DNA from: Plantactinospora mayteni
GTDB taxonomy: Bacteria; Actinomycetota; Actinomycetes; Mycobacteriales; Micromonosporaceae
Assembly: GCF_016862935.1 (NCBI RefSeq)
Contig: NZ_BONX01000004.1
Coordinates: forward strand, 310,001-374,000
Direction of reading: 5' to 3'
Length of the DNA stretch: 64,000 nucleotides
Shown here: piece after piece, positions 39,159 through 64,000 of the stretch
Position numbering within the stretch: the first letter of the stretch is position 1
Layout of the letters: each line of letters starts with the position of its first letter
Made by a program: the position numbers and the translations under genes
The notes under the pieces: model-generated
Database searches by the model: none
Told to the model about the DNA's origin: nothing
The model's input: the letters and a program-made list of their open reading frames with translations, nothing else

Positions 39159-39827
39159 GTGGCCGTTCCTCCCCGTGACACCCTCTCCCCCGACGAACTG
39201 CTGACCACCACCCGCAGCGTGCGGCGACGGCTGGATCTGACGCGCCCGGTTCCCGCGGCGCTGATCGACGAATGCATTGCGGTCGCGGTGCAGGCACCGA
39301 CCGCGCAGAACGCCCAGAACTGGCACTGGATCGTCGTCACCGACGCCGATCTTCGGCGCCAGATCGGCCACTACTACCGGCGGGCATATTACGCGTACCT
39401 GGAGGAGGGGGTCCGGGAGCGCCTGGCTGCCGGTACCCACGGCGGCGGCGCCGGCCAGAGTCCCGCCGAGCAGCGGCAGGCACACAGTTCCCGCTACCTC
39501 GCCGACCACATGGGCGAAGTGCCGGTGCTGGTCATAGCGGCCATCGACGTCGGCCAGCCCACGCTGCCGCCGGGCAATCAAGCGGGGTTGTGGGGGTCGC
39601 TGCTGCCGGCCGCCTGGTCCTACGCGCTGGCGGCTCGGGCACGCGGTCTCGGTACCACGTGGACGATGCTGCACCTACGCCACGAACAGGAGATCGGCCA
39701 CTTGCTGCGGCTGCCGGAGACCGTGTTCCAGGGCGTACTGCTGCCGACAGCGTATTTCCTCGGCGACACATTCCGGCCCGCCCGGCGCACACCACTCTCC
39801 ACGGTGATACACCGCGACGGTTGGTGA
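39159..39827 (+). CDS. Nitroreductase-family FMN oxidoreductase
   Basis: 222 residues with the nitroreductase layout: TTTRSVRRRLDLTRPVPAAL (Arg residues contacting FMN phosphate), VQAPTAQNAQNWHWIVVTD (A-P-S/T-x-x-N-x-Q-x-W motif), and SLLPAAWSYALAARARGLGT before the C-terminal cap. The family performs FMN-dependent reductions or dehydrogenations; in peptide pathways relatives oxidise azolines or reduce nitro groups. GTG 39159 lies 1 nt after the LuxR stop with GAGG overlapping, so the two are coupled. Position suggests tailoring, but the reaction is unknown. Confidence 0.85.
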   Translation: MAVPPRDTLSPDELLTTTRSVRRRLDLTRPVPAALIDECIAVAVQAPTAQNAQNWHWIVVTDADLRRQIGHYYRRAYYAYLEEGVRERLAAGTHGGGAGQSPAEQRQAHSSRYLADHMGEVPVLVIAAIDVGQPTLPPGNQAGLWGSLLPAAWSYALAARARGLGTTWTMLHLRHEQEIGHLLRLPETVFQGVLLPTAYFLGDTFRPARRTPLSTVIHRDGW

Positions 39828-39857
39828 CCGCCTGGTGGCTTTCGGCGCTGCCGACCT

Positions 39858-39878
39858 GCACCGACCCGGTGTCGGTGC
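39858..39878. terminator. Terminator between convergent nitroreductase and NRPS genes
   Basis: GCACCGAC (39858-39865) and GTCGGTGC (39871-39878) form a perfect 8-bp stem with a 5-nt loop between two convergent genes. There is no T tract, as is usual in high-GC actinomycetes. Confidence 0.5.
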
Positions 39879-39965
39879 GTACTGCCGGTGGAACACACAT
39901 GCCGGACACGATCGGTGCGGTGGCACGGGTACGCCGCCGCACCGTCATGGCCCGGCGGGACGGCT

Positions 39966-42900
39966 TCACCTGGACCCGCTTTCCTCCAGCGCCGGGTCGC
40001 GCACGCCGTCCAGTTCCGCCACCACGCCGGCAACCGTCGGACTACCCAGCATCCTCATCAGATCGAGGTCGACGCCGAGGGACGAGTTGATCCGGGCGAC
40101 GAGGCGGGTTGCCAGGAGGGAATGCCCGCCCAGCTCGAAGAAGTCGTCGTCGAGGGAAACCGACGGGATCCCGAGGATCTCCGCGAAGAGGCTTCCGACA
40201 ACCCTCTCCCGCAGTGTCGTCGGGGCCCGACCCGTCGACCGGGCGCCGTAGTCGGGGACCGGCAATGCCCGCCGGTCGAGCTTCGCGTTCGGGGTCAGCG
40301 GCAACGCGTCCAGCGCCACGAACGCGGCCGGCACCATGTAATCGGGCAACACCCGGGCCAGGTTCGACCGCAGTTGGCTGAGGTCGACGTCGACGCCGCC
40401 GACGGTCGCCAGGTATGCGACCAGGCGCTTGTCGCCCGGTGTGTCCTCCCGGACGATCACCGCCGCCTCCGTGACCGACGGATGGGTGCGGATGGCGTTT
40501 TCGATCTCCGCCGGTTCGATCCGGAAGCCGCGCAACTTCACCTGGTCGTCGGCGCGCCCGGCGAAGAGCAGGAATCCGTCGCTCGTCCACCGCGCCAGGT
40601 CTCCGCTGCGGTACATCCGCTCGCCCGGTGTTCCGAACGGGTTCGGCACGAACCGGGCCGCCGTCATTCCCGCACAGCCGAGGTAACCGCGGCCCAGGTT
40701 GGCACCGGCGAGATAGATCTCCCCCAGCATCCCGGGAGGAACCGGATTGAGGTACTCGTCCAGTACGTACACCCGGGAGTTGAACACCGGCCGGCCAATG
40801 GTGGGGCGGTCGTACTCGGCGAGCCGGCAGCCGGTCGCCTCCACGCCGAACTCGCTGGGGCCGTAGTAGTTGAACGCGGTGGTGCGCGGCGCCGCGCGGA
40901 GGTCGTTCCACAGGGCCTGACCGACCGCCTCGCCGCCGAGCATCAAGGTCCTGGGTGCGTTGTCACCGGCGACCACGCCATGCGCGACGAGCTGCTGCGC
41001 GAAGCTGGGTGTGACGTCGAGCTGCCCGACGCCGTGCGCCACGACGTACTCGACCATCCGTGCGGGATCACGTCGGTGCAGCTCATCCAAGAGATGCAAC
41101 TCGTGTCCGGCGATCATCGCCAGCACGCCTTCCCACGAGGTGTCGAACGACAGCGAGGCCGAGAGCGCCACCCGGAGCCGGTGCCCGGACGTCGCGGGCG
41201 GTGGGAAGGTGACCTCGGCGTGGTAGTGCCACAGGTTCGCCACCGCCCGGTGCAGCACCGTCACCCCCTTCGGGCGCCCGGTCGAGCCGGAGGTGTAGAT
41301 GACGTAGGCCGCGTGGTCCAACCGGAGCGGGGCGCGGTCGGCGTCCGTGGGGTCGTGTTCGGGGCGGGCTCGCTGGTCGTGGTCGGTGACCAGGACCGGG
41401 CTGGCCGCCACCCCGTCGACGGCCGCCGCGAGGGACTCGGTCGTCACCAACGCCACCGGCTGTGCGTCGGCAATGACGGCGCGGATGCGGTCGATCGGGA
41501 GGCACGGGTCGATCGGCGTGTAGACCCCGCCCGCCTTCCCGACCGCCAGCCAAGCGACGACGGCCTCCGCCGTCCTGGGCAGCGCGACGGTGACCAGCGA
41601 ATCGGGGCGTACCCCGATGTCGATGAGGTGGTGGGCGAGCCGGTTGGCCCAGGCGTTGAGTTCGCGGTAGCGGAGCCGTACCGCTCCGCTGACCAGCGCG
41701 GTAGCGTCCGGAGTCGCCTCCACCCGCTCCTCGAAGATCCTGGTGATCGTCTTGTCGGGTAGCGCCACGCCGGTGTCGTTCCAGGCCCGCAGCAGTTCCT
41801 GTTCCGCCGGGGTCCGGACGTCCAGCGTCGTCAGTTCGCGGTCCGGCTCGGTGCCGAGCATGTCCAGCCAGTGGACGAACCGTTCCGCCAGTACCGCGGC
41901 CGTCTGCGTGTCGAAGAGGTCGATTGCGTACTCGACGGCTCCGCTGATCCCTTGTGCGGTCCCGTCCGGCGTCGTCCGCTGCCGCATCACGAGGCTCAGA
42001 TCGGCACGCGCCGCGGTCATCGCGCGCAGCTCGACCTGCGTGTCGACGGCTGGCAGGTCCAGCGCCAGCTCAGCGTCGTGAACCTCGACACCGACCTGGG
42101 CCAGCGGGTAGAGGGAACGGGACCGGGCGGGCTTGAGGTCCTCGACAAGCCGCTCGAAGGGCACGTTCTGGTGCACGGCCGCGGCGAGGCTGAAGTCGCG
42201 GACCCGGCCGACGAGGTTCCGGAACGTCGGGTTGCCCGACACGTCCACCCGGAGGACCACCACATTGCCGACCAGGCCGACCAGGTCAGCCAGCGCCTCG
42301 TCGGTGCGGCCGGCGACCGGGACGCCGAGCGGGACATCCGTGCCGGCACCCAACCTCGACAGCATGGCCGCGACAGCCGCCTGTAGCACCACGGCCAGGG
42401 TCGTCCGAGCCTGCTCGCCGATGACCCGCAGCGCCGCGTGGGTACCCGGTGGGATGTCGAAGCGGATCTCCCCGCAACGGTTGTCGGAGGTCGCCGGTCG
42501 GGCACGATCGGATGGCAGCGCCAACTCCTCCGGCAGCCCGGCCAGCGTCTCCCGCCAGAAGCGCAGCCCGGCCGCCATCGGGCCGTCCTCGTCCTCGGTG
42601 CAATCCAGCAGGTGCCGTCGGCAGAGGCTGAACTGCGTGTACGGCACTGCCGGCGGTGGCAGGGCGGGCACTGCCCCGCGCAGCCGCGCCCGGTACGCCA
42701 CGCCCAGGTCCCGCAGCAGCGGAGCGATCGACCAGCTGTCGGCGACGATGTGGTGCAGGACCAGCACCAGCACGTGTTCGTCCGGCGCCAGCCGCAGCAA
42801 CGATGCCCGCACCGGCAGGTCTACGGCCAGGTCGAACGGGGGCGACGCCGCAGCGCGTACCTCGTCGTCGAGCTGCGGCGGAGCGCATTCCACCACTCGC

Positions 42901-43142
42901 AGCGACAGGGGCCGCTCGGCCGGCGGCAGCACCGTCTGGTGTGGCTCTCCCGCTGCTTCCGTGAACCTGGTCCGGAGGCTTTCGTGCCGGCCGACCACAT
43001 CCGCCAGGGCCAGCTCCAGAATTGCCACCTCGACTGGCCCGCGCATTCGCACCACGACCGGTAGGTGGTGTGTGGCGCCCGGCCCAGACAGCCGATCCAG
43101 ATACCACAGCCGCTCCTGGGCGGACGACAACGGGAACACCAT
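39966..43142 (-). CDS. Non-ribosomal peptide synthetase, C-A-T module
   Basis: 1058 residues. The condensation domain has the active-site motif HHIVADS (Gly replaced by Ser) near 131. The A domain has A3 YVIYTSGSTGRPKGV near 610, A5 FNYYGPSEFG, A8 GRADDQVKLRGFRIEPAEIE and A10 LTPNAKLDRRAL with the catalytic Lys. The carrier domain has DDFFELGGHSLLATR with Ser at about 1008. Pocket residues read by eye are D-T-E-D-M-G-Y-V-E-K; the extra acidic residues suggest a basic amino acid (inference). GGAGG precedes three in-frame starts, GTG 43145, ATG 43142 and GTG 43139. There is no TE or E domain. It diverges from the desaturase. Confidence 0.93.
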   Translation of the reverse strand: MVFPLSSAQERLWYLDRLSGPGATHHLPVVVRMRGPVEVAILELALADVVGRHESLRTRFTEAAGEPHQTVLPPAERPLSLRVVECAPPQLDDEVRAAASPPFDLAVDLPVRASLLRLAPDEHVLVLVLHHIVADSWSIAPLLRDLGVAYRARLRGAVPALPPPAVPYTQFSLCRRHLLDCTEDEDGPMAAGLRFWRETLAGLPEELALPSDRARPATSDNRCGEIRFDIPPGTHAALRVIGEQARTTLAVVLQAAVAAMLSRLGAGTDVPLGVPVAGRTDEALADLVGLVGNVVVLRVDVSGNPTFRNLVGRVRDFSLAAAVHQNVPFERLVEDLKPARSRSLYPLAQVGVEVHDAELALDLPAVDTQVELRAMTAARADLSLVMRQRTTPDGTAQGISGAVEYAIDLFDTQTAAVLAERFVHWLDMLGTEPDRELTTLDVRTPAEQELLRAWNDTGVALPDKTITRIFEERVEATPDATALVSGAVRLRYRELNAWANRLAHHLIDIGVRPDSLVTVALPRTAEAVVAWLAVGKAGGVYTPIDPCLPIDRIRAVIADAQPVALVTTESLAAAVDGVAASPVLVTDHDQRARPEHDPTDADRAPLRLDHAAYVIYTSGSTGRPKGVTVLHRAVANLWHYHAEVTFPPPATSGHRLRVALSASLSFDTSWEGVLAMIAGHELHLLDELHRRDPARMVEYVVAHGVGQLDVTPSFAQQLVAHGVVAGDNAPRTLMLGGEAVGQALWNDLRAAPRTTAFNYYGPSEFGVEATGCRLAEYDRPTIGRPVFNSRVYVLDEYLNPVPPGMLGEIYLAGANLGRGYLGCAGMTAARFVPNPFGTPGERMYRSGDLARWTSDGFLLFAGRADDQVKLRGFRIEPAEIENAIRTHPSVTEAAVIVREDTPGDKRLVAYLATVGGVDVDLSQLRSNLARVLPDYMVPAAFVALDALPLTPNAKLDRRALPVPDYGARSTGRAPTTLRERVVGSLFAEILGIPSVSLDDDFFELGGHSLLATRLVARINSSLGVDLDLMRMLGSPTVAGVVAELDGVRDPALEESGSR

Positions 43143-43145
43143 CAC

Positions 43146-43478
43146 CCTCCACCGCAGCTCGTGCCGTTCCGAAAGCCAGGCCGGACCAGGAACAAGATAT
43201 CCAGCTCGATGATCCAGCGACCTGTCGCAGGTTTCTGGGACCCCTCCGGCCGGACACGGCGGCCCCGATCCGTGACAGCCTCTATCACTGAATCTCTTTC
43301 AACCTGAACCGCGCGGCGCGTGCGCCCGACTCCACCTGCGACCACGACGGACCGCAAGGGGAGGTTGAAAAGGTTCACCGGCTTCGTCGGTGTCGACCCG
43401 GCCCCGCACCGCTCCGCACGACCTGGCGCATCGACCCGAAGCCGTCCGATCCGAGATGCCTGCCACGGAGCTGACGCA
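43146..43478. promoter_or_regulatory. Divergent promoter region, NRPS and desaturase
   Basis: About 330 bases with no supported gene. It must hold both divergent promoters. CTGAA occurs twice 16 nt apart near 43274-43294, next to TTTCAA. The spacing equals that of the repeats before the second LuxR gene, but the sequence similarity is slight. Confidence 0.4.
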
Positions 43479-44426
43479 GTGTCCGAGACGACAACCGCGC
43501 CGCAGCCGGAGATACTCTTCCAGCGCGCCCGGGTTACGCCCCACGACCAGCGGGTCTTCGTCGTCAAGCTCGTCGTCGCGCTGGCCATCACGTTCACCGG
43601 GATCGCCTTGGTGCTGGTCGGCAACGCCGTGACGATCGTCGTCGGCATCATCGTGCTGGGTGCCGTCTACACCCACATGGTCGAGCTACAGCATCAGTGC
43701 CTGCACCACTCCGCGTTCCTACGGCCCGCACCACACCGGGTGGTGGGCCTCCTCCTGGGGCTGCCGATGCTCGTCTCGTACAGCCATTACCGGGTGCGCC
43801 ACCTCCAGCACCACCGACACCTCGGCACCGACAGGGACACCGAGTTCTTCGGCTTCGACAGCCGGGGGCCGCTCACCATGGCCACCCTCGTGCACGGGCT
43901 GTTCGACTACCGCCGGCTCGTCATCGTCATGGTCGCCAGTTGGCGGAGTTGGAGGGGCAACTGGCGGTACGAGGACGGGCAGATCTCGGAGCGGCTCCGC
44001 CGGGACTGCACGGTCGAGTACCGCCTGATCGGCGGCGCGATAGTCGGCGCTGTGCTGGCTCCGGTCGGCGGCCTCGGCGAACTCGTACTGCAACTGTGGG
44101 TCGCTCCGCTCCTGCTGGTGGCGGTCCCCCTCCACTTCGCCGTGGAACTCCCCGAACACGTCATGTGCGACGACACCCGGGACGTACTCCGGAACACCCG
44201 CTCGATCACCGGCAGTCGACTGAGCACCTGGTTCACCAACGGCAACAACCTGCACATCGAGCACCACGCCGCGATGACCGTGCCACTGCACCGGCTGCCG
44301 GAGCGGCACCCGCGGGTCAGGCAGATCGCCAAGTACGTCGAACGCAGCTACTGGTCGTTCTACCGGGAGGTGATCCGGGAGGTAGCCGGTACCCGGCGGC
44401 GCCACGCGCGCGAGATCCCCCCGTAG
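43479..44426 (+). CDS. Membrane fatty acid desaturase-like enzyme
   Basis: 315 residues with four or so membrane segments (VVALAITFTGIALVLVG, TIVVGIIVLGAVYTHMV, LRLIGGAIVGAVLAPVGG region) and the three histidine boxes of di-iron membrane desaturases: HQCLHH at about 72, HLQHHRH at about 107 and HIEHH at about 260. Members introduce double bonds or hydroxyls into acyl chains or related substrates, sometimes while bound to a carrier protein. Start GTG 43479 has GGAG 8 nt upstream. Its place between NRPS genes suggests a tailoring role in this cluster. The long upstream frame extension is non-coding. Confidence 0.85.
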   Translation: MSETTTAPQPEILFQRARVTPHDQRVFVVKLVVALAITFTGIALVLVGNAVTIVVGIIVLGAVYTHMVELQHQCLHHSAFLRPAPHRVVGLLLGLPMLVSYSHYRVRHLQHHRHLGTDRDTEFFGFDSRGPLTMATLVHGLFDYRRLVIVMVASWRSWRGNWRYEDGQISERLRRDCTVEYRLIGGAIVGAVLAPVGGLGELVLQLWVAPLLLVAVPLHFAVELPEHVMCDDTRDVLRNTRSITGSRLSTWFTNGNNLHIEHHAAMTVPLHRLPERHPRVRQIAKYVERSYWSFYREVIREVAGTRRRHAREIPP

Positions 44427-44441
44427 TGCCCGCACATCGCA

Positions 44442-44456: not shown

Positions 44457-44567
44457 CACCGGGGGCTGCTCGCGCGCCCCGCTGACAGCCACGGGAGCAG
44501 GTCGCCACCGGATCGATCGTCCGGCGGACGGTCGTCGCGGTCGGAGGATCCTCGGTGCGAGCCGGCG

Positions 44568-47500
44568 TCATCGGCTCCGGTGCGTACCACGGGCAGCGAG
44601 ACGGCGCTCCCGCAACGTGCCGATGTTCCGACCGGGCCGCCAGCCCGCCGTGCCGACGGACGCACCGGCCGTGAAGTGCTGGGCCAGCGCGCGCACCGTG
44701 GGGTGTTCGAAGAGCAGGGTGACCGGCACGCTGCGGCCGAGTCGCTCCTCCAACCCGACATGCAGGACCGCCATCAGCAGCGAACTGCCGCCCAGGTCGA
44801 AGAAGTTCACGGTCACCGCGACCTGGTCGACGCGGAGGACTTCGCACCAGAGCGCGGCGATGGTCCGTTCCATTTCGGACACCGGCGCGGTGTGGCCAGG
44901 GTGGCGGACCGGCGGCGGCTCGGGAAGCGCACCCCGATCGACCTTGCCATTGCCGCTCACCGGGATCGCGTCCACGACGACGATCCGCGCCGGCAACACC
45001 GGCTCGGGGAGCACCGTGCGGAGGAACGCACGGATCCCTGGTTCGTCCGGCTCCGCGCCTGGCGCCGCGACGACGCCCGCGATGACGACCGGTACGCCCG
45101 CCTGCCCGCTCCGGACCGCGGCGACGGCATCCGCCACCGCCGGATGCTCGCGTAGCCGGCGCTCGATCTCCGCCAGTTCGAATCGGACGCCGTTGATCTT
45201 CACCTGGTCGTCGGGTCGGCCCAACACGGTCACCGTGCCGTCGGTGCCGTACCGGCCCAGGTCGCCGGTGGCGAACCGACGGTGCCCGGGCACCGGGTCG
45301 CCGGTGAAACGGCCAGGATCCGGACCGCGCAGGTAGCCCTCGGCCAGGTATCGGCCGCGGATCACGATCTGCCCGCGCTCGCCGACCGCGGCCGGCCGAC
45401 CGGCCCCGTCGACAACGAGCAACTGCGTGCCCGGGGCGCCCGCACCAACCGGCGCCGGACCGTCGACAGGCTCGCCGGAGCACCGCTGCGGGACCACGGC
45501 CAGCGCGGCGACCTGCGGCGTCTCGGTGGCTCCGTAGGCGTTGACCACGACGGCGTGCGGCGCCCACGAGCGCACCCGCTCGACATCGGATCGTCGCATC
45601 GTGTCACCGCCGAGCACGATCAGCCGGGCCGCCGACGTCGGCGCGCCCCGCGGCCGGGCCAGGAGTCTGGCCAGCGGTGGGGTCAGGTGCACTACGGTGA
45701 CCCGCTGGTCGGCGAGCCACCGACGCAGGGCGGCCGGGGCCAGCAGGAGTTCTCCGGGAGGCACGCACGCGGTTCCCCCCACCCACAGCGGGGTCAACAG
45801 GTCACGCAGCAGTGGATCGTGGGCCAGACCGGACAGGACCGCGAACCGGTCGCCGGGTCCGAGGTCGAACCGGTCGACGTACCAGCGCAGGAAGTGGGCG
45901 ACCGGGGTGGCGCCGCCGACGATGCCCTGCGGTACGCCGGTCGTGCCCGAGGTGAAGGCCACGTACATCGCCGGATCGGCGGGGGCCGGCCCCGGGCTGC
46001 CGTCGACCGGCGCCGCCCCGTCCGCCACGTCCAGCCACTGCGGGCAGACCCGCCGCACCGCCGACGGGAGGTCACCGGCCGCGGGATCACGCACACCGGT
46101 CCGGGCATCCACCTGCCGCAGCTGCTCGGCAAGCCGCTCGGCGGGGTACCCGGCGTCGAGAACGGTGAATGCGGCACCGGCGGCCATGATGCCCAGGAGC
46201 GCAGGAACCAACGCCGGCGTTCGGGCGGCGAACACCGGGACCACGTCGCCCGGTCCGACGCCGGCGGCGAGCAGCCTGCCGGCCAGCTCGACGGCACGGT
46301 CGTACACGTCGGCGTAGCTCAGGTCACCGCCACCACCGGTCACCGCCGTCCGGCCGGGACAGCGTTCCCGGACCGACCACAGGGTCGCCAGCAACGGCGG
46401 TGCCGGGTCGGGCGCCAGGTCCAGGGCCTCGTCGGGTAGCGCCCTCCGGCTCGCCGGTGTCCGCACGTCGTGCTGGCCGACGGGTACGTCCGGGTGGGTG
46501 CAGACCGCGTCGAGCAGCAACAGGTACTGGTCCGTTAGCTCGGCGGCGTGCCCCGCGTCGATCACACCGGTGTCGTGTACCAGCCGCAGCCGGTAGCCGT
46601 CCGGCTCCTCGGTGAGATAGACGTTCAGGTCGAAGAGGGCACCGGTTGCCGGCGGCTGCGCGAACTCGGTGTGCAGACCCGTCATCTCCGGCGCCGCTGT
46701 CGGCGAACCGAGCAGGTTGAACCAGGCCCGGAACAGCGGGCTGCGGCGCGGGTTCCCGCCGAGACCGAGATCCACGACGATCCGGTCGAACGGCGCCTCG
46801 GAGTGGGCCACCCCGGCCCCGACGGCCTGGCCGACCCGTCGCACCGCGCTGGTGAACGTCATCTCCCCGGGGATGCGGAGCCGCAACGGCAGCGTGGTGA
46901 CGAAGAAGCCGACGACGAGGTCGAGCTCTTCGCGATCGCGGGCGGCGTGCGGCACGCCCACCACCAGGTCCGGCCGCCCCGACCAGCGACCGAGCAACGC
47001 GGCGAACGCGGTGAGCAGCACCGTGTACTCGGTTGTCCGGTGGCCGCTGGCAGTGGCCCGGATCCGTGCGGTCAGCGCCTCGGAGAGCCGCCGGGAAACC
47101 TCGCCCAGGGACCCGCCGCCCGGGCCCTCCGGGTCGGGCAGATCCAGCGGCGGCGGCAGGTCCGACAGGTGCTCACGCCAGTATTCAAGATCCGCGTCGA
47201 CCGTCCCGTCGGCCAACCGTCGCGCCTGCCAGGCCGCGACGGCGGCGAAGCTGACCGGCAGTGCCGGCAGGTCCGGTGCCGCTCCGGCCACCAGTGCGGA
47301 GTACACCTGGCCCAGCTCGCGAACGAGGACGCGTTCGGACCAGCCGTCGAAGACGATGTGGTGCACGACGATCAGCAACTCGTGGCGATCGGGAGCGTGG
47401 CGCAGCAACGCCACCCGGATCGGCGGCCCGGCGGTGAGGTCGAAGGGTACTCGGATCCGTTCCTCGACGAGGTCGGCGGCGGATCGGTCGGCGACCTCGA

Positions 47501-49529: not shown

Positions 49530-49931
49530 CCGCGATGCTCCGCTCTCGATCACCGGCCCGTTCGGCACCGCCACCTCCCTGCCGACCACATCCTCCCGGT
49601 GCCTCCGATGCCGTACACGTCCCTGAAAACGAGTACCGCGCCGCGCCCCGAGCTGGCGGCGGGCCACCCCAGGGTGCGGCGGACCATCGCGGTGCTGGCG
49701 GGTTCATCACCGCCGTCCCGAGTTCTGGCGACAGGGGCGGGCGACGGCGCGGCCGTAGCATCCGGGAAGACGTAGGACACCGCGCCGCCGCGCGTTCATG
49801 GCACGTCTCCTGCCCGGGATCGTGCTCACCAGTCACAGACCTTGGAACGCGGCCTGGCCTCCGCCAACCGAGCGCCGACATGCCCGCCGGTTGGCGGCGC
49901 GGGGTCCCGGTGCTCTCCCGAGGAGTTGATT
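49530..49931. promoter_or_regulatory. Divergent promoter region, NRPS and mbtH-like gene, with leader dyad
   Basis: About 400 bases without a supported gene. CCGCCAACCG (49861-49870) and CGGTTGGCGG (49888-49897) are exact inverted 10-nt arms with a 17-nt loop, ending 34 nt before the mbtH-like start. It could be an operator or a leader stem-loop. Confidence 0.45.
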
Positions 49932-50150
49932 GTGTTCGACGACGAGGACCGCACGTTCCAGGTCGTGGTCAATGACGAGGAGCAGTACTCGATCTGGCCC
50001 GCCGACCGCGAGATACCGGCCGGTTGGCGGTCGTCCGGGCCGAGCGGGCCGAAGGCCGAGTGCTTGACGTACATCGACGAGGTGTGGACCGACCTGCGGC
50101 CACTGAGCCTGCGCGCCGGAATGGCTGCCGGAGACTGCGCCGCGGATTGA
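49932..50150 (+). CDS. MbtH-like protein, NRPS adenylation partner
   Basis: 72 residues, the standard size. It has the MbtH signature in full: [19 protein letters not shown], then [18 protein letters not shown]. MbtH proteins bind A domains and support their folding and activity, so this one probably serves one or more synthetases of the cluster. GTG 49932 is chosen because AGGAG lies 6 nt upstream; an upstream in-frame TTG is too close to that site. It is divergent from the A*-T*-C-A-T gene. Confidence 0.93.
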
Positions 50151-51270: not shown

Positions 51271-51277
51271 TGAACCG

Positions 51278-51874
51278 CTACCTTCCCGGAGTCGGTGACG
51301 GCTGGCAGAAGTCGCCGAGTACGGCCGCACGGGTGAGGTCGGCCTTGTTGCCCAGCGCGAGCTTTGCCCGGATGCGCTTGACGTAGGTGTCGACGGTGTG
51401 GCCGCTGATCCCGAGCAACCGGGCGATCTGACTGTGGGTGAGGCCGCGGGCGATGTGACGTAGCACCTGTCGTTCCCTCGGGGACAGCGCCGGCCGTTCG
51501 GCGTCGGACGCGGTCCCGAAATGGTGACCGCCCTTGACGACGACCCGCGTCGCCTCGCGTACGGCGTCCGGGGCGGCGGCGCGACCCACGAATCCCGCGA
51601 CACCCGCCCGCAGGTACCGTGCCACGTCCTCGTCGGCGGCGGCCGGAAGCGTCAGCAGCACTGGCGCCACCCGGGCCGACCGGTGGGTGAACTCCTCCAC
51701 CGTGGTGCCCCGCAACGCCTGCGGGTCGGCCACCACCACGTCGGTACGCCACGAGGGCGCGTCGGTGGCGGTGCCCTGCGCGCCGGAAACGGTGAACCCG
51801 TCGCGGCTGAAGATGTCCACCAGGCCCGCGAGGAAAATGGGACTGCGTTCAACAACGTGAACTCGGATCACCAT
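51278..51874 (-). CDS. LuxR-family regulator with atypical receiver domain
   Basis: 198 residues. The helix-turn-helix is LSPRERQVLRHIARGLTHSQ, IARLLGISGHTVDTYVKRIR. The receiver-like domain has only one acidic residue at the start (VHVVERSPIFLAGL) and an Asp in VVVADPQALRG, so it may not be phosphorylated. It is paralogous to the regulator at 38543-39157. ATG 51874 follows GGGGG closely; GTG 51871 is an alternative. It sits inside the biosynthetic operon, after the PKS and before the monooxygenase, with its own 173-bp upstream region containing direct repeats. Confidence 0.87.
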   Translation of the reverse strand: MVIRVHVVERSPIFLAGLVDIFSRDGFTVSGAQGTATDAPSWRTDVVVADPQALRGTTVEEFTHRSARVAPVLLTLPAAADEDVARYLRAGVAGFVGRAAAPDAVREATRVVVKGGHHFGTASDAERPALSPRERQVLRHIARGLTHSQIARLLGISGHTVDTYVKRIRAKLALGNKADLTRAAVLGDFCQPSPTPGR

Positions 51875-57501: not shown

Positions 57502-57860
57502 CCTTTCCGCTCTCGGAGCCGGGACCTGAGGTCCCGCCGGTCCTGCACGGCGGAGCGGTGGGTCCGCCCCGCTGCCGTCGGCAGGGTCGTCGCCGGCAGC
57601 GCCGCCTGCCCGGCGAGGTGCCGGGCGAGCGACCGGCGGGTCGGGTACTTGAAGAACACCGTCACCGGCAGGCCCGGCGGGAGTCGGCCGGCGAGCCGCT
57701 CGAAGACGCCGACCAGCGTCGCGGAGGTGAGACCGGCCTCGAAGAAGCTGGCGTCGGCGGGCATCCGAAGCCCGCTGACCTCCAGGATCACCATGGCGAG
57801 CACGGTCTCCCAGGCGGTCGCGTCCAGGTCCGGCAGGTCCGGATCCACCGCTGCTGTCAT
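57498..57860 (-). CDS. Free-standing acyl/peptidyl carrier protein
   Basis: 120 residues. The carrier motif ASFFEAGLTSATLVGVFERL has the phosphopantetheine Ser in GLTS, and VFFKYPTRRSLARHL is the usual fourth-helix region. The tail of about 30 residues is basic. It overlaps both neighbours by 4 nt (ATGA), linking the upstream NRPS to the downstream PKS. It may accept the glycyl intermediate and pass it to the KS, an inference from order alone. Confidence 0.85.
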   Translation of the reverse strand: MTAAVDPDLPDLDATAWETVLAMVILEVSGLRMPADASFFEAGLTSATLVGVFERLAGRLPPGLPVTVFFKYPTRRSLARHLAGQAALPATTLPTAAGRTHRSAVQDRRDLRSRLRERKG

Positions 57861-60800
57861 CGGCCGGTCCCGCCGGTCTGGATCAGCGCGGCGAGCGCGG
57901 CCGGAGTCGGGGCCCGGAACACCATCGCCATCGTCACCGGTACGCCGAGCCGGCTGGTGACAGCGGTCGCCAGGCGCACTGCGACGAGCGAGTTGCCGCC
58001 GTTGAGGAACAGGTTGTCGAGCGGCCCCACCGCCGGGCGGGACAGCACCGACCGCCACAACTCCACGAGTACCGCCTCGGTCGTGTCGGCCGGTTCCCGG
58101 TCCCCGTCGGCGGGCACCGGCGCCCCGTCGACCGGTAGGTCACGCCCGGCGAGCGCCCGGTGGTCGGTCTTGCCGTTGTCGGTGGACGGCAGTTCCGGCA
58201 GTACGACGACCTGGGCGGGCATGCTGTAGGCGGGCAGCCGGCGGGCGGCGTACGACCAGATGTCGGCGGTCAGTCCGGGCCGCTCGGTGGCCGCGACGAA
58301 CGCGACGAGCCGGCCGTCGGCGCTCGGGTCGCCGCGCAGCGCGACGCTGGCCGCGCGGACCTCGGGATGGTCCTCCAGAACGCTCTCCACCTCACCCAGC
58401 TCGATACGGTGGGCACGTAGCTTGACCTGGCGGTCCTCCCGGCCGAGCAGTTCCAGCTGGCCGTCCGGTCGCCAGCGAGCCACGTCACCGGTCCGGTAGC
58501 CACGCCCCACGGCCTCGGTGTCGCGGAACCGTTCCCCGGTCAGGTCCGGCTGGTTGTGGTATCGCACGGCAACGCCGTCGCCGCCGATGTACAGCTCGCC
58601 GGCCAGCCCCACCGGACGGGGCCGGCCGCGGGGGTCCAGCACCGCCACCCGGGTGTTGCTGATCGGGGTCCCGATGGTCACCGGCCCGGCGGGGCTGAGT
58701 TCGGCCGCAGTGGACCAGATCGTGGTCTCCGTCGGCCCGTACACGTTGAGCACCCGGGCACCGGTCGCGTGCAACTGTTCGGCGAGCGGGGCGGACAGCG
58801 GCTCACCGCCGCACAGGACGGTACGGCCGACGAGTCGCCCCTTCGCGGCGGGTGCGGCGAGCCGCCACGTCGTCGGCGTGGCCTGCACGGCGGACACGTC
58901 CGCGTCGTCGATCAGTTCGACCAGCGCGTCGGGGCTGGCCCGCAGCTCGTCCGCGGCGACCACGACCCGGCCGCCCACCGACAGCGGCAGGAACAACTCC
59001 AGCGCGGAGATGTCGAACGCGAACGTGGTGAGCCACATCATGCTGGTGGTGCTGTCCATGTCCAGCTCGGTGGCGAAGTGCCGGACAACGTTGGCGAGGT
59101 TCCGATGGGTCAGCACCACGCCCTTCGGTCGACCGGTCGAGCCCGACGTGTAGATGAGGTACGCCGGGGCTTCCGGGTCCAACCCGGAGAACGTGGGTAG
59201 CCGGTCGAGTGAGGTGAGTTTCCCGAACGCCGGTACCGGTAGCACGGTGCGACCGGCGGCGCAGCCTTCCGGCGGGTCGCCGATCACGACGCGGCAGTCC
59301 GCGTCGGTGAGCTGCTCGACGAGCCGGGCGGGCGGATGGTCGGGATCCAGTGGCAGGTACGCCGCGCCGGCCGCCCAGACCCCGAGCGCGGCAGCCGCCA
59401 CCGGGGCACCGCGCGGCGCGGCGATCGCGACAACCGACCCTGGCCCGGCACCGAGGTCGGCCAACTTGCCGGCGGTCGCGGCGCCGGCCCGGAGGAGCTG
59501 GGCGTACGTCACCGGCCTGCCGCCCTCGACGACGGCCGTCGCGGCAGGGTGCCGGCGAGCCACCGCGTCCACCATGCCGAGCACCGTGCCCGGTTCCGGC
59601 CACGCCACGGCCGTGCGGTTGGCGTCGGCGACCAGCCGGCGGTCCGCGGCGGTACGCAGGTCGAAGTCGCCCAGCGGCCTCGTCGGGTCGGCTGCGGCCT
59701 GTGTCAGCACCACGTCGAGCCGCTCCAGGAACGTCCGCGCGAGGCTCGGGTCGTACGCCTCGGTGCTGGCCAGGAGATACGCGACGGTCTGCGCGCCGAT
59801 CCGGGCCACCGTAAGCTCCAGGTCGAAGCGGCTGAGCCCGGTCGACACGTCCCGGATGCGCGACCCGGCACCGACCGGCTCCGGATCCGGCGCTCCCGGG
59901 CGGAAGTTGAACAGGCAGCGGACCAGCCGGTTGCGCCACCAACTCGGATCGGCGCCGGCCGTGCCGACGTGGCCCCGGGCGAGTACCTCGAACGGCACCG
60001 GCCCGTGCTCGATGGGGTCGACCATCAGCCGGGTCACCCGGGCCACCAACGTCTCGAACGGCATCGCGGCGGCGAGCGTCACCCGCAACGGAAGCGTCGC
60101 GACGTGGTAGCCGACCGCGCCACCCCCGGCGGCGGTACTTCCGGCACGGGTGTCCATCATGACCCCGACCAGCGCGTCGTCCGCCGCGCCATGCCCGCGC
60201 AGGGTGGCGTAGTAGGCGGACAGCAGCACGATCGCGTCGGTCGTGTGGCATCGGCGACGCAGCGTCGCCAGGGCCTGTACCGCCTCGTCGGCCATCGGCC
60301 GTTCCACGAGATGGCCGGCGAAGGTGGGTGGGCCGACCGGGTCCTGTGCACCCTCCAGGCGCATTCCCGCCGAGTCGTGGCCGGCGACGTGGTCCCGCCA
60401 GAACCGCAACGCCTGCGGTGGCACCGTCGCCGGTGGCAGCTCGATCGGTGGCGGCAGGGTGGGCGGTTCACCGTCGGCGGCGATCGCCTCGTACGCCTGC
60501 CCCAACTCGTCGACGAGCACCCGCAGGCTCGCCGCGTCGATCACGATGTGGTGGGCGACCAGGCAGACGATCTGCCGGTGGGGACCGACGGCGAACAGGC
60601 CGACCCGGAGCAGCGGGGGCTCGTCCAGGGTGAACGGGGCGGCGGCGTACGCCCGCAGGTCCGCCTCGACCGTCTCGGGTGTGCTGCCGTACACATCGAG
60701 TTCGAGCGGTACGTCGGCGTCGGTGGGTCGTCGCACCGGCACCCCGTCAACGGCCGAAAACGACGTACGCAGGCTCGCGTGCCGCCGCACCAACCAGTTC

Positions 60801-60973
60801 AGGGCTTCCCGCAGCGGCCACCAGCGGGGCGGGCGGTCGAACTCGATGGCCAGCGCCACGTTGGACACCGCCCGGTCCGGGACCAGTTGGTGCAGCAGCC
60901 ACAGTGCTTCGGTCCCGGGGTCCAACGCGACGCCGTCGAGGGGCGGCGGCGCGCTGTCGGGGGCGGCGGTCAC
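57857..60973 (-). CDS. Non-ribosomal peptide synthetase, C-A-T module, glycine-like
   Basis: 1038 residues. The C domain has HHIVIDA near 140 (Gly of HHxxxDG replaced by Ala). The A domain has A3 YLIYTSGSTGRPKGV near 606, A5 LNVYGPTETTIW, A8 GREDRQVKLRAHRIELGEVE and A10 PSTDNGKTDHRAL. The pocket residues read as D-I-L-Q-L-G-V-I-W-K, one change from the classic glycine code D-I-L-Q-L-G-L-I-W-K. The carrier domain has NLFLNGGNSLVAVRL near 993. Start GTG 60973 overlaps the thioesterase stop by 4 nt. Its stop overlaps the carrier-protein start. Confidence 0.93.
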   Translation of the reverse strand: MTAAPDSAPPPLDGVALDPGTEALWLLHQLVPDRAVSNVALAIEFDRPPRWWPLREALNWLVRRHASLRTSFSAVDGVPVRRPTDADVPLELDVYGSTPETVEADLRAYAAAPFTLDEPPLLRVGLFAVGPHRQIVCLVAHHIVIDAASLRVLVDELGQAYEAIAADGEPPTLPPPIELPPATVPPQALRFWRDHVAGHDSAGMRLEGAQDPVGPPTFAGHLVERPMADEAVQALATLRRRCHTTDAIVLLSAYYATLRGHGAADDALVGVMMDTRAGSTAAGGGAVGYHVATLPLRVTLAAAMPFETLVARVTRLMVDPIEHGPVPFEVLARGHVGTAGADPSWWRNRLVRCLFNFRPGAPDPEPVGAGSRIRDVSTGLSRFDLELTVARIGAQTVAYLLASTEAYDPSLARTFLERLDVVLTQAAADPTRPLGDFDLRTAADRRLVADANRTAVAWPEPGTVLGMVDAVARRHPAATAVVEGGRPVTYAQLLRAGAATAGKLADLGAGPGSVVAIAAPRGAPVAAAALGVWAAGAAYLPLDPDHPPARLVEQLTDADCRVVIGDPPEGCAAGRTVLPVPAFGKLTSLDRLPTFSGLDPEAPAYLIYTSGSTGRPKGVVLTHRNLANVVRHFATELDMDSTTSMMWLTTFAFDISALELFLPLSVGGRVVVAADELRASPDALVELIDDADVSAVQATPTTWRLAAPAAKGRLVGRTVLCGGEPLSAPLAEQLHATGARVLNVYGPTETTIWSTAAELSPAGPVTIGTPISNTRVAVLDPRGRPRPVGLAGELYIGGDGVAVRYHNQPDLTGERFRDTEAVGRGYRTGDVARWRPDGQLELLGREDRQVKLRAHRIELGEVESVLEDHPEVRAASVALRGDPSADGRLVAFVAATERPGLTADIWSYAARRLPAYSMPAQVVVLPELPSTDNGKTDHRALAGRDLPVDGAPVPADGDREPADTTEAVLVELWRSVLSRPAVGPLDNLFLNGGNSLVAVRLATAVTSRLGVPVTMAMVFRAPTPAALAALIQTGGTGR

Positions 60974-61737
60974 CGGACCGCCCGGGGCGCCGCCGGCAGG
61001 TCCCCCGACACCGCGGCGGCGACCTGCGCCGCCAGCGCGTCGCAGGCGTCGTCGAGGAGCCAGTGGCCGCCGTCGACCAGCCGGACGTCGAGCGGGTGGC
61101 TGGTGTGGCGGCGCCAGCCGAGGAACGCGCCGCGCGGACTGCCGTCGGCGCGGCCGAAGGACACGGTCACCGGGATCGGCAGGGGCAGGTCGGGCTGGTG
61201 CCGGTAGCCGGCGAGCCAGGTGAAATCGGCCCGTACGGCCGGCTCGGCGACCTTCTGTAGCCGGGGGTTGCGCCCGAGGCTCGCCGGTACGCCCCCGGAC
61301 TCGACCAGTTCCGTCCAGAGCAGGTCGGCCGGCAGGTGGGCGATCCGCCTCGGCCGCCTGGCGATGTCCGGCGCCTCGTAGGAGACCACCACCAGCCGGA
61401 GCGGCAGCGTCGCCGACCGGGCCCGTAGCATCCGGGCCAGTCCGTAGGCGAGCAGTGCGCCGCCGCAGTAGCCGAGCAGTACGTACGGCTGGTCGAGCCG
61501 TCCGGTGATCTCGTCGACGAGTTCCTCGGCCAGGTCCTCGAAGCGAGTACGGGCCGGCTCGTCGAGCCGCGCCTGGCGGCCCGGCAGGTTCGCCGCCCAC
61601 ACGGACATCCCCTGTGCGGCGGCGGCGCGGCCGAACGGGGCGAGCTGCGCGCAGCCCGCCCCGGCGTGCGGGAACGCGAAGACCCGCAGGCCGGTGTCGT
61701 CGGCCACCGGCAGGAACCAGTCCCGGGCGTCGGTCAC
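60970..61737 (-). CDS. Type II thioesterase with a cysteine nucleophile
   Basis: 255 residues of the alpha/beta-hydrolase thioesterase family: LRVFAFPHAGAGCAQLAPFG at the start (oxyanion region), nucleophile elbow VLLGYCGGALLAYGLARM near 89 with Cys where Ser (GHSxG) is usual, Asp in VSFGRADGS, and His in VDGGHWLLDD. Type II thioesterases clear misprimed carriers; Cys-type thioesterases are known in some unusual release reactions. GGAAGGAGG lies just before GTG 61737, and both ends overlap neighbours by 4 nt. It is the only thioesterase visible in the window. Confidence 0.88.
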   Translation of the reverse strand: MTDARDWFLPVADDTGLRVFAFPHAGAGCAQLAPFGRAAAAQGMSVWAANLPGRQARLDEPARTRFEDLAEELVDEITGRLDQPYVLLGYCGGALLAYGLARMLRARSATLPLRLVVVSYEAPDIARRPRRIAHLPADLLWTELVESGGVPASLGRNPRLQKVAEPAVRADFTWLAGYRHQPDLPLPIPVTVSFGRADGSPRGAFLGWRRHTSHPLDVRLVDGGHWLLDDACDALAAQVAAAVSGDLPAAPRAVR

Positions 61738-64000
61738 GCCTCCTCCTTCCCGGTCGCGGACGGCGGCGTACGGCCAGCCAGCCGCGCCGCCAGCAGTGCC
61801 GGGGTCGGCGCCTCGAAGATCAGCTCGAAATCGACCGGGTGGCCGAGCGTGGCGCCGAGCCGCTCGGCGAGCCGCATCGCCAGGAGGGAATGGCCGCCGC
61901 TGAGGAAGAAGTTGGACTCCACCGTCAGCCGCGGGTCGTCCAGGACCTCCCGCCACACCTCGACGAGCAGCCGCTCGGTCGGGTCGTCCGGCATCGGCGC
62001 CTCGGGCGCGGCGGCACCGGCCCGCGCCACGGCCGCCGCGACCGCTCGGTAGTCGACCTTGCCGTTGCCGGTGAGCGGCAGGTCGGGCAGCAGCACGAAC
62101 CGGCTCGGCACCATCGCCGCCGGCAACCGGGCCGCAAGGTGGTCGTGCAGCCGGACGGTCAACGGCTGATCGGCGGAACCGCTGGCGGTGGGGTCGGTCG
62201 ACACGATCGCCGCGACCAGCCGCTGGTGTCCCGCCGGGTCGGGTTCGGCGATCACGGCGGCGGCCCGCACCTCGGGATGCCGTTCCAACACCGATTCGAC
62301 CTCGCCTGGTTCGACCCGGTGACCACGCACCTTGAGCTGCCGGTCGGCGCGGCCGAGATACTCCAGGATCCCGTCGGGGCGCTGCCGCACCCGGTCACCG
62401 GTGCGGTACAGCCGCCCGTGCCGCGGGTCGGTGACGAACCGCTCGGCGGTCAACGGCGGGTCGCCCCGGTAGCCGAGCGCCACCCCGGTACCGCCGATCC
62501 GCAACTCACCCGGCACCCCGACGGGCACGTCCGCGCCGGTGGAGTCGGTGACGTACCCGGTGGTGTTGGAGATCAGGGCACCGATCGGTACCGGCTCCGG
62601 CACCGGGGAGGTCAGCTCCGTCGCCGTCGACCAGATCGTCGTCTCCGTCGGCCCGTACACGTGGTACAGCCGGCACCCGGCCGCGAGCAGCTGTTCGGCG
62701 AGCGTCGGGGTGAGCGGCTCACCGCCGCTGAGCACCCGCCGGCCCCGCAACCGCTGCCCCAGCACGGGCGCGAGGTGGCGCCACAGCGTCGGCGTGGCCT
62801 GTAGCACGGTGACGTCACGGTCTACGACCAGGTCGAGCAGAGCCCCGGGATCGGCGCGGACCCGATCGGCCGCGACCACCACCTCGGCGCCGGTCACCAG
62901 CGGCAGGAACAACTCCAGCGCGGAGATGTCGAACGAGAAGGTGGTGCTCCACAGCACGCGGTCGGCCGTGGTCACCGCCAACTGCTCGCGGAAGTGGTGC
63001 ACCACGTTGGCGAGGTTGGCGTGCGACACCACCACCCCCTTGGGGCGGCCGGTGGAGCCGGACGTGTAGCTGACGTACGCGGGATCGTCGCCGGTCGTCG
63101 ACGACGCCGACAGGGTGCTCGCCAGCCCGGGGCGGGGTGCCGCCGGCAGGTCGACGACGGCCCGGTCGTGGTCGCGGCCCGCCGGCAGCGGCCGGTCGGC
63201 CAGCACCACCCGCACGCCGGAGTCGGCCAGTTGGAAGTCGATCCGCTGCGCCGGGTGCTCCGGCTCCAGCGGCAGGTACGCGGCGCCGACCGCCCAGCAT
63301 CCCAGCGCGCCGGCCGCGAGCTGCTTGCCGCGTTCGCCGTACAGGCCGACGACGTCGCCGCGGCCGACCCCGTGCGCCGACAGGTCCGCGGCGACCGCCA
63401 GGGCCCCGCGACACAGGTCGTCGTAGGTCCAGTCGTCGATCGCGACCGCCTGCGGTGTCTCCGCCGCCTGCTCGCGGATCAGGGTGCCGAGGGTGGCGGC
63501 CGGCCAGGTACGCGCGGGCCCCCGGGATGCCGCGCGTTCCCGCTCCCCGTCGGCGTCGCAGTCGACCGATCCGACCGGCCGGCAGGCGCCGGTCTCGTCC
63601 AGCGACTCGTCCAGGGCGATCAGCAACCGCTCCAGCCGAGCCAGCAGGGTCGTCGCGAGCCCGCGGTCGTGGACCTCGGTGCTGTAGCGGAAGTCGACGG
63701 TGAGCCTGTCCGCCTGGAACGAGGCGAGCAGTTCCAGGTCGACCCGGCTCACCGCGGTGTACGCGTCGATGCCGCGCACCGGTGCGCCCGCCATCGTCTG
63801 GTCGCCGGTGCCGGTGGGCAGGTTGTTGAACGTGTGCCGGAACAGTGGCACCCGCCAGTCCGCCGACCGCACCGGCAGGGCCGGCTGGATCGCCTCGAAC
63901 GACGCGTCGCCGTGTTCCAGACCGAGCAGGAACGCGTCGCGGGTGTGCCGGACGAGGGTGGTGAAGCCGGCGGCAAGGTCCACCGTGACCCGGATCGGCA
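61734..64000 (-). CDS. Non-ribosomal peptide synthetase, C(partial)-A-T, glycine-like, 5' end outside window
   Basis: 755 residues are visible; the frame is open to the edge and the sequence there (TTLVRHTRDAFLLGLEHGDA, PFRHTFNNLP region) is the C-terminal half of a condensation domain, so the GTG at 63983 is not the start. A domain: A3 YVSYTSGSTGRPKGV, A5 YHVYGPTETTIW, A8 GRADRQLKVRGHRVEPGEVE, A10 LTGNGKVDYRAV. The pocket reads D-I-L-Q-L-G-V-I-W-K, glycine-like and identical to that of the 57857-60973 module. Carrier: NFFLSGGHSLLAMRL. It is the first gene visible of the leftward operon and overlaps the thioesterase start. Confidence 0.9.
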   Translation of the reverse strand, partial: PIRVTVDLAAGFTTLVRHTRDAFLLGLEHGDASFEAIQPALPVRSADWRVPLFRHTFNNLPTGTGDQTMAGAPVRGIDAYTAVSRVDLELLASFQADRLTVDFRYSTEVHDRGLATTLLARLERLLIALDESLDETGACRPVGSVDCDADGERERAASRGPARTWPAATLGTLIREQAAETPQAVAIDDWTYDDLCRGALAVAADLSAHGVGRGDVVGLYGERGKQLAAGALGCWAVGAAYLPLEPEHPAQRIDFQLADSGVRVVLADRPLPAGRDHDRAVVDLPAAPRPGLASTLSASSTTGDDPAYVSYTSGSTGRPKGVVVSHANLANVVHHFREQLAVTTADRVLWSTTFSFDISALELFLPLVTGAEVVVAADRVRADPGALLDLVVDRDVTVLQATPTLWRHLAPVLGQRLRGRRVLSGGEPLTPTLAEQLLAAGCRLYHVYGPTETTIWSTATELTSPVPEPVPIGALISNTTGYVTDSTGADVPVGVPGELRIGGTGVALGYRGDPPLTAERFVTDPRHGRLYRTGDRVRQRPDGILEYLGRADRQLKVRGHRVEPGEVESVLERHPEVRAAAVIAEPDPAGHQRLVAAIVSTDPTASGSADQPLTVRLHDHLAARLPAAMVPSRFVLLPDLPLTGNGKVDYRAVAAAVARAGAAAPEAPMPDDPTERLLVEVWREVLDDPRLTVESNFFLSGGHSLLAMRLAERLGATLGHPVDFELIFEAPTPALLAARLAGRTPPSATGKEEA

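What the first reader, a model, noticed from the sequence alone, without database searches (positions are those of the whole stretch)
39159..64000. Hybrid NRPS-PKS cluster with an unusual tailoring set
Four NRPS proteins, one KS-AT-KR-DH-ACP PKS, a free carrier, MbtH-like protein, Cys-type thioesterase, membrane desaturase, LLM monooxygenase, nitroreductase and paired LuxR regulators occur together. Two adjacent glycine-like modules feed a single malonyl extension predicted to reduce and dehydrate, and two further NRPS proteins sit on separate transcription units. I do not recognise a known pathway with this combination.
Basis: partly seen in the sequence, partly recalled or inferred. Interest (0 to 1): 0.7.

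Follow-up and report, generated by a model that had tools for sequence, protein, structure and literature searches.

The report
Peptide assembly line with tRNA-dependent ligase
An actinobacterium carries a large gene cluster for an unknown small molecule in which a normal peptide-polyketide assembly line appears to be helped by a separate enzyme that borrows an amino acid from a transfer RNA, a combination known from one characterised pathway but here in a different form.

Summary
The hybrid NRPS-PKS cluster is real and the listed parts are present, but the window cuts it. The same tight operon runs past 64000 and adds two more KS-AT-KR-DH-ACP PKSs, a second Cys-type thioesterase with carrier, and a LanB-like protein (70277-72661). 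That protein has the predicted LanB fold, no elimination domain, and conserved residues spaced like the ATP site of peptide aminoacyl-tRNA ligases (PEARLs); the genome's own true LanB lacks three of them. The closest characterised system is sna/threopeptin (SnaE), whose ligase acts on a carboxylate freed by a ureido-forming C domain. That C signature is absent here. Instead, in 14 of 18 rows of this ligase's group the gene abuts a KS-AT-KR-DH PKS, and many such clusters carry an A domain with Arg239 (DPRHVGAQVK here; 35 of 157 A domains near LanB-like genes, 0 of 78 in background). I propose that this A domain loads an acidic residue whose free carboxylate the ligase extends. The substrate is inferred, and three clusters with this A domain lack a nearby ligase. 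The window's A-T-C-A-T NRPS has a dead first A-T pair. New variant of a known kind.

The parts
34956..37919 (+). Regulator, HTH_31 + NB-ARC + TPR
   Evidence: Pfam; a homologue (35%) followed by a LuxR homologue in the G104 stretch
38543..39157 (+). LuxR-type regulator (GerE)
   Evidence: Pfam
39159..39827 (+). Nitroreductase-fold protein (nearest NCBIfam model BluB, far below cut-off)
39966..43142 (-). NRPS D: C-A-T; code read DTEDMGYVEK or DTWDMGYVEK depending on the alignment; substrate not assigned
43320..44426 (+). Membrane FA_desaturase-family protein (nearest NCBIfam model GntB arginine hydroxylase, far below cut-off)
44568..49667 (-). NRPS C: A1-T1 dead by motif, then C-A2-T2; A2 code DPRHVGAQVK (Arg239 type)
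49842..50150 (+). MbtH-like protein
50212..51273 (-). LLM1, luciferase-like monooxygenase
51278..51874 (-). LuxR-type regulator inside the operon
52048..57501 (-). PKS3: KS-AT(malonyl, HAFH)-psiKR-KR-DH-ACP
57498..57863 (-). CP0, free carrier protein
57857..60967 (-). NRPS B: C-A-T, code DILQLGVIWK (Gly)
60970..61737 (-). TE2, discrete thioesterase-family protein with Cys motif GYCGG
61734..64000 (-). NRPS A: C-A-T, code DILQLGVIWK (Gly); the gene runs past the window end to 64862. Beyond it, same operon, coordinates continued past the window: PKS2 64859-70177, LanB-like predicted PEARL-type ligase 70277-72661, SDR-like frame in 72662-73707, PKS1 73708-79137, free carrier CP1 79234-79515, Cys-type thioesterase TE1 79512-80378 (all minus strand)
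   Evidence: beyond the window

Best explanation
The locus is one hybrid NRPS-PKS cluster whose operon carries a PEARL-type ligase. Shown by sequence: the operon, the domain orders, the Gly-type codes, the dead motifs of A1-T1, and a LanB-like protein with a predicted LanB fold, PEARL-like ATP-site residues and no elimination domain. Inferred: the ligase activates a free carboxylate of the assembly-line product with ATP and joins to it an amino acid taken from a charged tRNA, as proposed for SnaE in threopeptin. The free carboxylate does not come from a ureido-forming C domain of the known kind. The most likely source is an acidic residue (Glu, Asp or a homologue) loaded by A2 of the window's NRPS C through its side chain, so that its alpha-carboxylate stays free. 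The dead A1-T1 is then passed over and the C-A2-T2 half works as an extension module. The Gly modules and three malonyl modules that reduce and dehydrate build the rest, and the Cys-type thioesterases with the free carriers may shuttle acyl or aminoacyl groups between carriers.
For: Operon: from LLM1 to TE1 the genes overlap or lie at most 173 bp apart, except one gap of 1046 bp that holds an SDR-like frame. LanB-like protein: PF04738 hit E 6.6e-21; AlphaFold2 model pLDDT 85.7, pTM 0.87; best PDB folds MibB, TbtB, MadB, NisB, GodF (E 3.8e-22 to 1.9e-16), next glutathione synthetase, an ATP-grasp enzyme by my recall, at E 6e-3. PEARL residues from PMC11962472 (passages): BhaBCTrp Asp558/Glu575 (17 apart), Glu813-x-Arg815, Tyr205/Arg208 (3 apart); here Asp500/Glu517 (17 apart), Glu766-x-Arg768, Tyr139/Arg142 (3 apart). 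In 80 LanB-like rows Asp500, Glu517 and Arg142 are 80 of 80, Glu766 and Arg768 79 of 80 (the last row ends before), Tyr139 76 of 80. The genome's own LanB on contig C62, next to the genome's only PF14028 match, has Tyr139, Arg142 and Glu766 but a gap, Gln and Ala at 500, 517, 768. Adjacency: in 11 of 11 closest relatives examined a PKS of this type lies next to the LanB-like gene. Arg239 A domains: 35 of 157 in 79 LanB-like loci against 0 of 78 (two of them with a gap there) in 20 NRPS regions without LanB.
Against: No step has been tested at the bench. The ligase residues were matched by motif and spacing to residues quoted in a paper, not by alignment with a PEARL sequence. Two further tRNA-contact residues of BhaBCTrp (Gln201, Arg197) have no counterpart at that spacing; those at Arg429, Arg715 and Phe755 were not checked. 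In one search the own-genome LanB aligns well to the family only at its C-terminal end, so its states at 500 and 517 are less sure than at 768. Sequence search of the PDB found nothing with the protein alone and only one LanB structure, MadB, at E 1.5 with the family profile. Three of the 13 best relatives of A2 (G108, G319, G350) have the Arg239 code and an adjacent PKS but no LanB-like gene in about 20 kb on each side, and one (G134) is undecided; G108 and G319 have no LanB-like match anywhere at E 1e-20. One ligase-group member, G161/L092, has the PKS but no Arg239 code in 80 kb. PMC12283262 (passages) gives a DPRH code to an alpha-aminoadipate A domain but an 80% identical one to Asn, so DPRH does not prove an acid. 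Side-chain activation by such pockets is recalled; I did not find it in print.
Confidence: 0.5

Rival explanations
1. [quoted passage not shown]
For: PEARLs act on C-terminal carboxylates of peptides (PMC11212132); the operon has discrete thioesterase-family proteins; a DPRH code is listed for Asn (PMC12283262).
Against: Does not explain why Arg239 codes are so enriched near LanB-like genes, or why no locus of 79 has both Arg239 and the ureido signature. But 37 of the 79 have neither, so other carboxylate sources must exist.
Confidence: 0.3
2. It works exactly as in threopeptin: a ureido-forming C domain reverses the chain and the ligase extends the exposed carboxylate.
For: Similar parts list: A-T-C-A-T, PKS, MbtH, thioesterase, LanB-like (PMC11212132).
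Against: EHHxxHDG is absent from the C domains of all four NRPS proteins (LHHIVADG, AHHIVIDA, VHHIVFDG, LHHIVADS), was not among the C motifs read in the stretches of the closest relatives, and is absent from the fetched loci of the 17 named members of the ligase group.
Confidence: 0.05
3. The LanB-like protein is a true dehydratase half that glutamylates Ser/Thr of an assembly-line intermediate.
For: LanB fold and PF04738 hit.
Against: The genome's only PF14028 elimination domain lies on another contig beside a different LanB; PEARL-like ATP-site residues are present here and lacking in that LanB.
Confidence: 0.08
4. The LanB-like gene is a bystander and the cluster is an ordinary uncharacterised NRPS-PKS.
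For: Three relatives keep the A2-PKS unit without it.
Against: It lies inside the operon and next to a PKS of the same kind in 14 of 18 rows of its group, two more being cut by contig ends.
Confidence: 0.07

Closest known systems
sna cluster / threopeptin, ligase SnaE (Yu and van der Donk 2024, PMC11212132; abstract and main text read to the end of the Discussion, no supplement)
   Same: Stand-alone LanB-like protein in an NRPS-PKS cluster; A-T-C-A-T NRPS, PKS, MbtH, discrete thioesterase.
   Different: No EHHxxHDG C domain; first A-T dead; PKSs are KS-AT-KR-DH-ACP instead of KS-AT-T; two Gly modules; Cys-type thioesterases with carriers; no acyl-CoA dehydrogenase among the proteins scanned (not every gene was scanned).
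PEARLs on ribosomal scaffold peptides (TglB, BhaBC; PMC11962472 passages, PMC11212132)
   Same: LanB-related; ATP-site and two tRNA-contact residues at matching spacing.
   Different: Sits in an NRPS-PKS operon; two other tRNA-contact residues do not match; a scaffold peptide gene was not looked for systematically.
Class I LanB dehydratases (NisB, MibB, TbtB, MadB, GodF)
   Same: Overall fold, Tyr139/Arg142 positions.
   Different: No PF14028 partner; Asp500, Glu517, Arg768 present, which the genome's own LanB lacks.
Aminoacyl shuttles SyrC, CmaE, CysB and TEII LgnA (PMC8748450, PMC7966384, PMC10956176; passages)
   Same: Discrete acyl-transfer proteins working between carriers; here thioesterase-family proteins beside free carriers.
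   Different: TE1 and TE2 have Cys (GYC[SG]G) where LgnA has Ser; shuttling is a guess from these parallels.

Membership tests
PEARL-type aminoacyl-tRNA ligase | LanB glutamylation-domain fold without elimination domain PF14028 nearby | tested here: met
   PF14028 only on contig C62
PEARL-type aminoacyl-tRNA ligase | ATP-site residues (Asp and Glu 17 apart, Glu-x-Arg near the C-terminus) | tested here: met
   control. Matched by motif and spacing, not by alignment to a PEARL
PEARL-type aminoacyl-tRNA ligase | tRNA-contact residues of the helix Arg-Gln-Tyr-Arg | tested here: inconclusive
   Tyr and Arg match, Gln and Arg upstream do not
PEARL-type aminoacyl-tRNA ligase | ATP- and aminoacyl-tRNA-dependent peptide bond formation | not testable with these tools
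   needs purified protein
sna/threopeptin-type cluster | Ureido-forming C domain EHHxxHDG | tested here: not met
sna/threopeptin-type cluster | A-T-C-A-T NRPS, PKS, MbtH, discrete TE and LanB-like gene together | tested here: met
   but the first A-T is dead by motif
Class I LanB dehydratase | Elimination domain PF14028 in the protein or next to it | tested here: not met
Enediyne PksE | KS-AT-ACP-KR-DH-PPT order (recalled) | tested here: not met
   KR-DH pair present, but ACP is last and no PPTase domain found. PMC9967187 (passage) calls the KR-DH pair specific to PksE; these PKSs do not fit that
Side-chain-activating A domains for acidic residues | Arg at 239 with DPRH-like code | tested here: inconclusive
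   Code DPRHVGAQVK; literature gives DPRH to aminoadipate and to Asn; side-chain activation recalled only
Known MIBiG cluster | Same gene order and domain set in a characterised cluster | not testable with these tools
   MIBiG/antiSMASH not available; in the listings of paper searches I saw only sna as a relative

The most novel reading that the evidence does not exclude
PEARL-type ligases form a general second amide-bond machine in actinobacterial assembly lines, recruited wherever the line leaves a carboxylate it cannot activate: either after ureido chain reversal (known) or after loading an acidic residue by its side chain through an Arg239 A domain (new, here with a KS-AT-KR-DH PKS; possibly also the DAR-coded A domain found in 19 loci, 17 of them with two LanB-like frames).
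Probability: 0.33. Interest if true: 0.75.

Novelty: new variant of a known kind. Interest (0 to 1): 0.6.

Why it matters
About two thousand NRPS/PKS clusters carry a protein annotated as lantibiotic dehydratase (PMC11212132), and I know of one that has been worked out. If the Arg239 A domain supplies the free carboxylate, a sequence rule would predict where the ligase acts and which clusters make side-chain-linked, tRNA-extended peptides, so many orphan clusters become testable. The window also holds an example of a loading module in decay that is intact in five relatives and absent from the gene in at least one (G104).

Tried and rejected
Ureido formation as in threopeptin: set aside on the C-domain signature. 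True dehydratase: set aside on PF14028 and on residues. Enediyne-type PKS: set aside on ACP position and no PPTase. A Cys-type Dieckmann cyclase (NcmC-like, PMC10956176 passages) for TE1/TE2: not favoured because both hit the thioesterase family PF00975 and sit beside carriers, but not excluded. A tRNA-Cys called inside the LanB-like gene (L009:8804-8897) is taken as a false call. First readings of a TE-C-A-T fusion and of a 964 aa LanB-like protein came from wrong starts and were dropped. 'unkX' (86263-86841) overlaps, antisense, a frame that matches SDR enzymes. A single-protein scan of genome contigs found nothing; the profile scan did. A sequence search of A2 in the PDB said nothing on specificity.

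Limits: codes were read from alignments anchored on NRPS A; some have gaps, and position 239 of NRPS D shifts with the alignment. Loci reach at most 10 kb on each side, so absences there are soft. One search returned the best 80 of 304 relatives (79 loci). Related rows are not independent, so the Fisher values are not used as proof. Background A domains come from 20 regions picked by hand from the listing, some of them alike (L195 and L203; L207 and L214).
Full report
Where it is. The window is G000:C4:310001-374000; the contig runs on to 432579. I read on and use window coordinates continued past 64000. Of the six other genomes of the own genus, one (G333) has LanB-like matches, distant ones (best E 6.2e-58), and five have none at E 1e-20.

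What is in the window. The genes from LLM1 (50212) to TE1 (80378) lie on the minus strand with overlaps of 4-7 bp or gaps of at most 173 bp, except one of 1046 bp in which an SDR-like frame is open. Order in the direction of transcription: TE1, CP1, PKS1, SDR-like, LanB-like, PKS2, NRPS A, TE2, NRPS B, CP0, PKS3, LuxR, LLM1. NRPS C, NRPS D, MbtH, the desaturase and the nitroreductase lie beyond gaps of 544 bp or more, or on the other strand.

Modules. NRPS A and B both read DILQLGVIWK, one letter from a code given for Gly (PMC12283262 passage). All three PKSs have the KS Cys motif and the first His motif; the second His motif was found by pattern in PKS1 and PKS3, not in PKS2. All have a malonyl-type AT motif (recalled rule), a KR with its nucleotide-binding motif, a DH after the KR, and a terminal ACP. 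The Gly of the DH motif HxxxGxxxxP is replaced in PKS2 and PKS3. NRPS C is A-T-C-A-T, but its first A has Glu at 235 and Gly in place of the A10 Lys, and its first carrier has Trp where the phosphopantetheine Ser belongs. Five relatives keep these residues (G002, G342, G135, G242, G174). In G104 and G080 the matching gene starts with the C domain (1184 and 1133 aa read); in G080 another frame with an A domain lies right upstream, so there the pair may be split off instead of lost. The second A reads DPRHVGAQVK.

The LanB-like protein. In Pfam at E 1 it matches PF04738, and weakly a DprA winged-helix model; its chosen start at 72661 is preceded by GGAGG. With 22 family sequences AlphaFold2 gave pLDDT 85.7, pTM 0.87, and Foldseek matched it to MibB, TbtB, MadB, NisB and GodF, then weakly to glutathione synthetase. 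PMC11962472 (passages) names the residues that PEARLs use for ATP and tRNA. Counterparts of Asp558, Glu575, Glu813, Arg815, Tyr205 and Arg208 are found here with the same local spacing and are almost invariant among 80 LanB-like rows; Gln201 and Arg197 have none at that spacing, and the match of Arg44 to BhaBCTrp Arg34 is only a guess. The same genome has a true LanB next to the genome's only elimination domain; aligned with the family it lacks three of the ATP-site residues and keeps Tyr139, Arg142 and Glu766 (the alignment is firm only at the C-terminal end). This is the best evidence that the cluster protein is a ligase and not a dehydratase.

Closest known system. PMC11212132 (abstract and main text to the end of the Discussion) shows by gene removal that SnaE is needed to add Thr to a bis-arginyl ureido product of Stackebrandtia nassauensis genes, that the ureido group comes from a C domain with signature EHHxxHDG, and that about two thousand NRPS/PKS clusters carry LanB-annotated proteins. 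No C domain of the four NRPS proteins here has that signature. In the listings and passages that I saw no other worked-out NRPS-PKS example appeared; most subscription papers are not in that library.

How general it is. Of the 79 named LanB-like loci (best 80 of 304), 77 have an NRPS A or C domain in the fetched stretch and the other two have a PKS domain. Seven have EHHxxHDG. In the tree the window's ligase falls among 18 rows on one side of a branch (SH-aLRT 100; the root is a midpoint, so the group is a clade only if the root is right). Of the 18, 14, the window included, have a complete KS-AT-KR-DH PKS within 150 bp; two more are cut by contig ends with the PKS end next to the gene (L095, L098) and two are not adjacent (L087, L088). 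None of the 17 named loci of the group has EHHxxHDG. In the first comparison, which overlaps with this set, 11 of 11 closest relatives had such a PKS next to the LanB-like gene, ten within about 100 bp (two of these, G351 and G134, show only the end of the PKS) and G141 at about 1.1 kb; in G080 and G141 the two genes are convergent.

The A domain beside it. I read pocket codes for the 157 A domains found in the 79 loci. Thirty-five have Arg at 239, in 35 different loci: 16 of the DPR[HDSQ] kind and 19 of the DAR kind; 17 of the latter 19 loci show two LanB-like frames. No locus has both Arg239 and EHHxxHDG; 37 have neither. Among 78 A domains of 20 NRPS regions without LanB, none has Arg239, two having a gap there. 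Of 16 named loci with an adjacent KS-AT-KR-DH PKS, 13 have a DPR code within 10 kb, including three outside the 18-row group (L111, L135, L144); L089 and L090 have it further away (as G104 and G342), and L092/G161 has none in 80 kb.

Reverse test, with its misses. A search of 150 family genomes with A2-T2 gave, besides the window itself, 13 hits with E up to 4.2e-90; all 13 have DPR[HN]xxxQxK. Of the next 16 loci read, one per genome, none has a DPR code and one (L243) has a DAR code; whether a LanB-like gene lies near L243 was not examined, and one search lists those of that genome on other contigs. The DPRD domain of G080 was not among the 13, so deeper members exist. LanB-like genes are near nine of the 13 (G143, G094, G075, G320, G323, G002, G342, G104, G135). 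G134 is a contig fragment and cannot be judged. G108, G319 and G350 have no LanB-like gene in about 20 kb on each side, though a KS-AT-KR PKS (DH not detected by that query, as also in G320) is next to the A domain in all three. The A domain and the PKS thus form the tighter unit, and the ligase is a frequent but not constant partner.

Model. The ligase needs a free carboxylate. An A domain that reads an acidic residue and activates its side chain would leave one. I recall that A domains of microcystin synthetase and of the penicillin tripeptide synthetase, which activate side-chain carboxyls, have such pockets with Arg239; in print I saw only that DPRH codes are listed for aminoadipate and for Asn (PMC12283262, passage). 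The step is therefore a hypothesis at about one in three. That a PEARL-type ligase acts in this pathway I hold at about two in three. What amino acid it adds is not known.

Other parts. TE1 and TE2 have Cys where thioesterases usually have Ser; homologues with GYC[GSA]G or GFCGG occur in G342, G104 (two), G002 (two), G135, G242 and G161, while more distant ones have Ser. In G342, G104, G135, G161 and G002 one lies right after a Gly module. Acyl shuttling between carriers is documented for SyrC, CmaE, CysB and LgnA (PMC8748450, PMC7966384, PMC10956176; passages). Genes further right (80.5-98 kb) add free-standing C domains, carriers, an LLM of the MupA/Atu3671 family, an acyl ligase, a second desaturase and others; some recur in G104 next to PKS1. 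Where the cluster ends on the right is not settled.

Verdict. A real hybrid cluster, a large part of it outside the window; new variant of a known kind. Interest rests on the ligase and its A-domain partner, not on the tailoring list.

Noticed in passing
continued coordinates 106372-108912 (L011:3372-5912): A second valyl-tRNA synthetase (NF000540 alt_ValS), 61% identical to another copy on contig C28; could be self-resistance or an aminoacyl-tRNA supply, or unrelated.
   Followed up: partly
continued coordinates 104685-106010 (L011:1685-3010): SerRS-like amino acid:[carrier protein] ligase by PDB match (4h2w, 3mey), near a free carrier at 100886-101152.
   Followed up: partly
L105, L121, L128, L136, L159 and others (19 loci): Loci of Streptomyces, Saccharothrix, Actinokineospora and others with an A domain of code DAR[S][VAC]SQMTK, 17 of 19 with two LanB-like frames; product unknown to me.
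   Followed up: no
L126, L129, L132, L145, L149, L158 (Saccharothrix) and L130 (Salinispora): LanB-like and A domains in one open frame or next to each other, followed by C-A NRPS frames.
   Followed up: no
G108, G319, G350 (L245-L250): A-T-C-A-T plus KS-AT-KR PKS clusters with the DPRH A domain but without LanB-like gene nearby; first A reads DVL[FA][VI]AWVCK.
   Followed up: partly
continued coordinates 82489-83568 (L012:7489-8568): 359 aa protein that looks by eye like a ParB/StrR-type regulator; Pfam gives only weak HTH hits.
   Followed up: no
L026 (G350:C76): A LanB-like relative with an in-frame TGA; left as it is.
   Followed up: no
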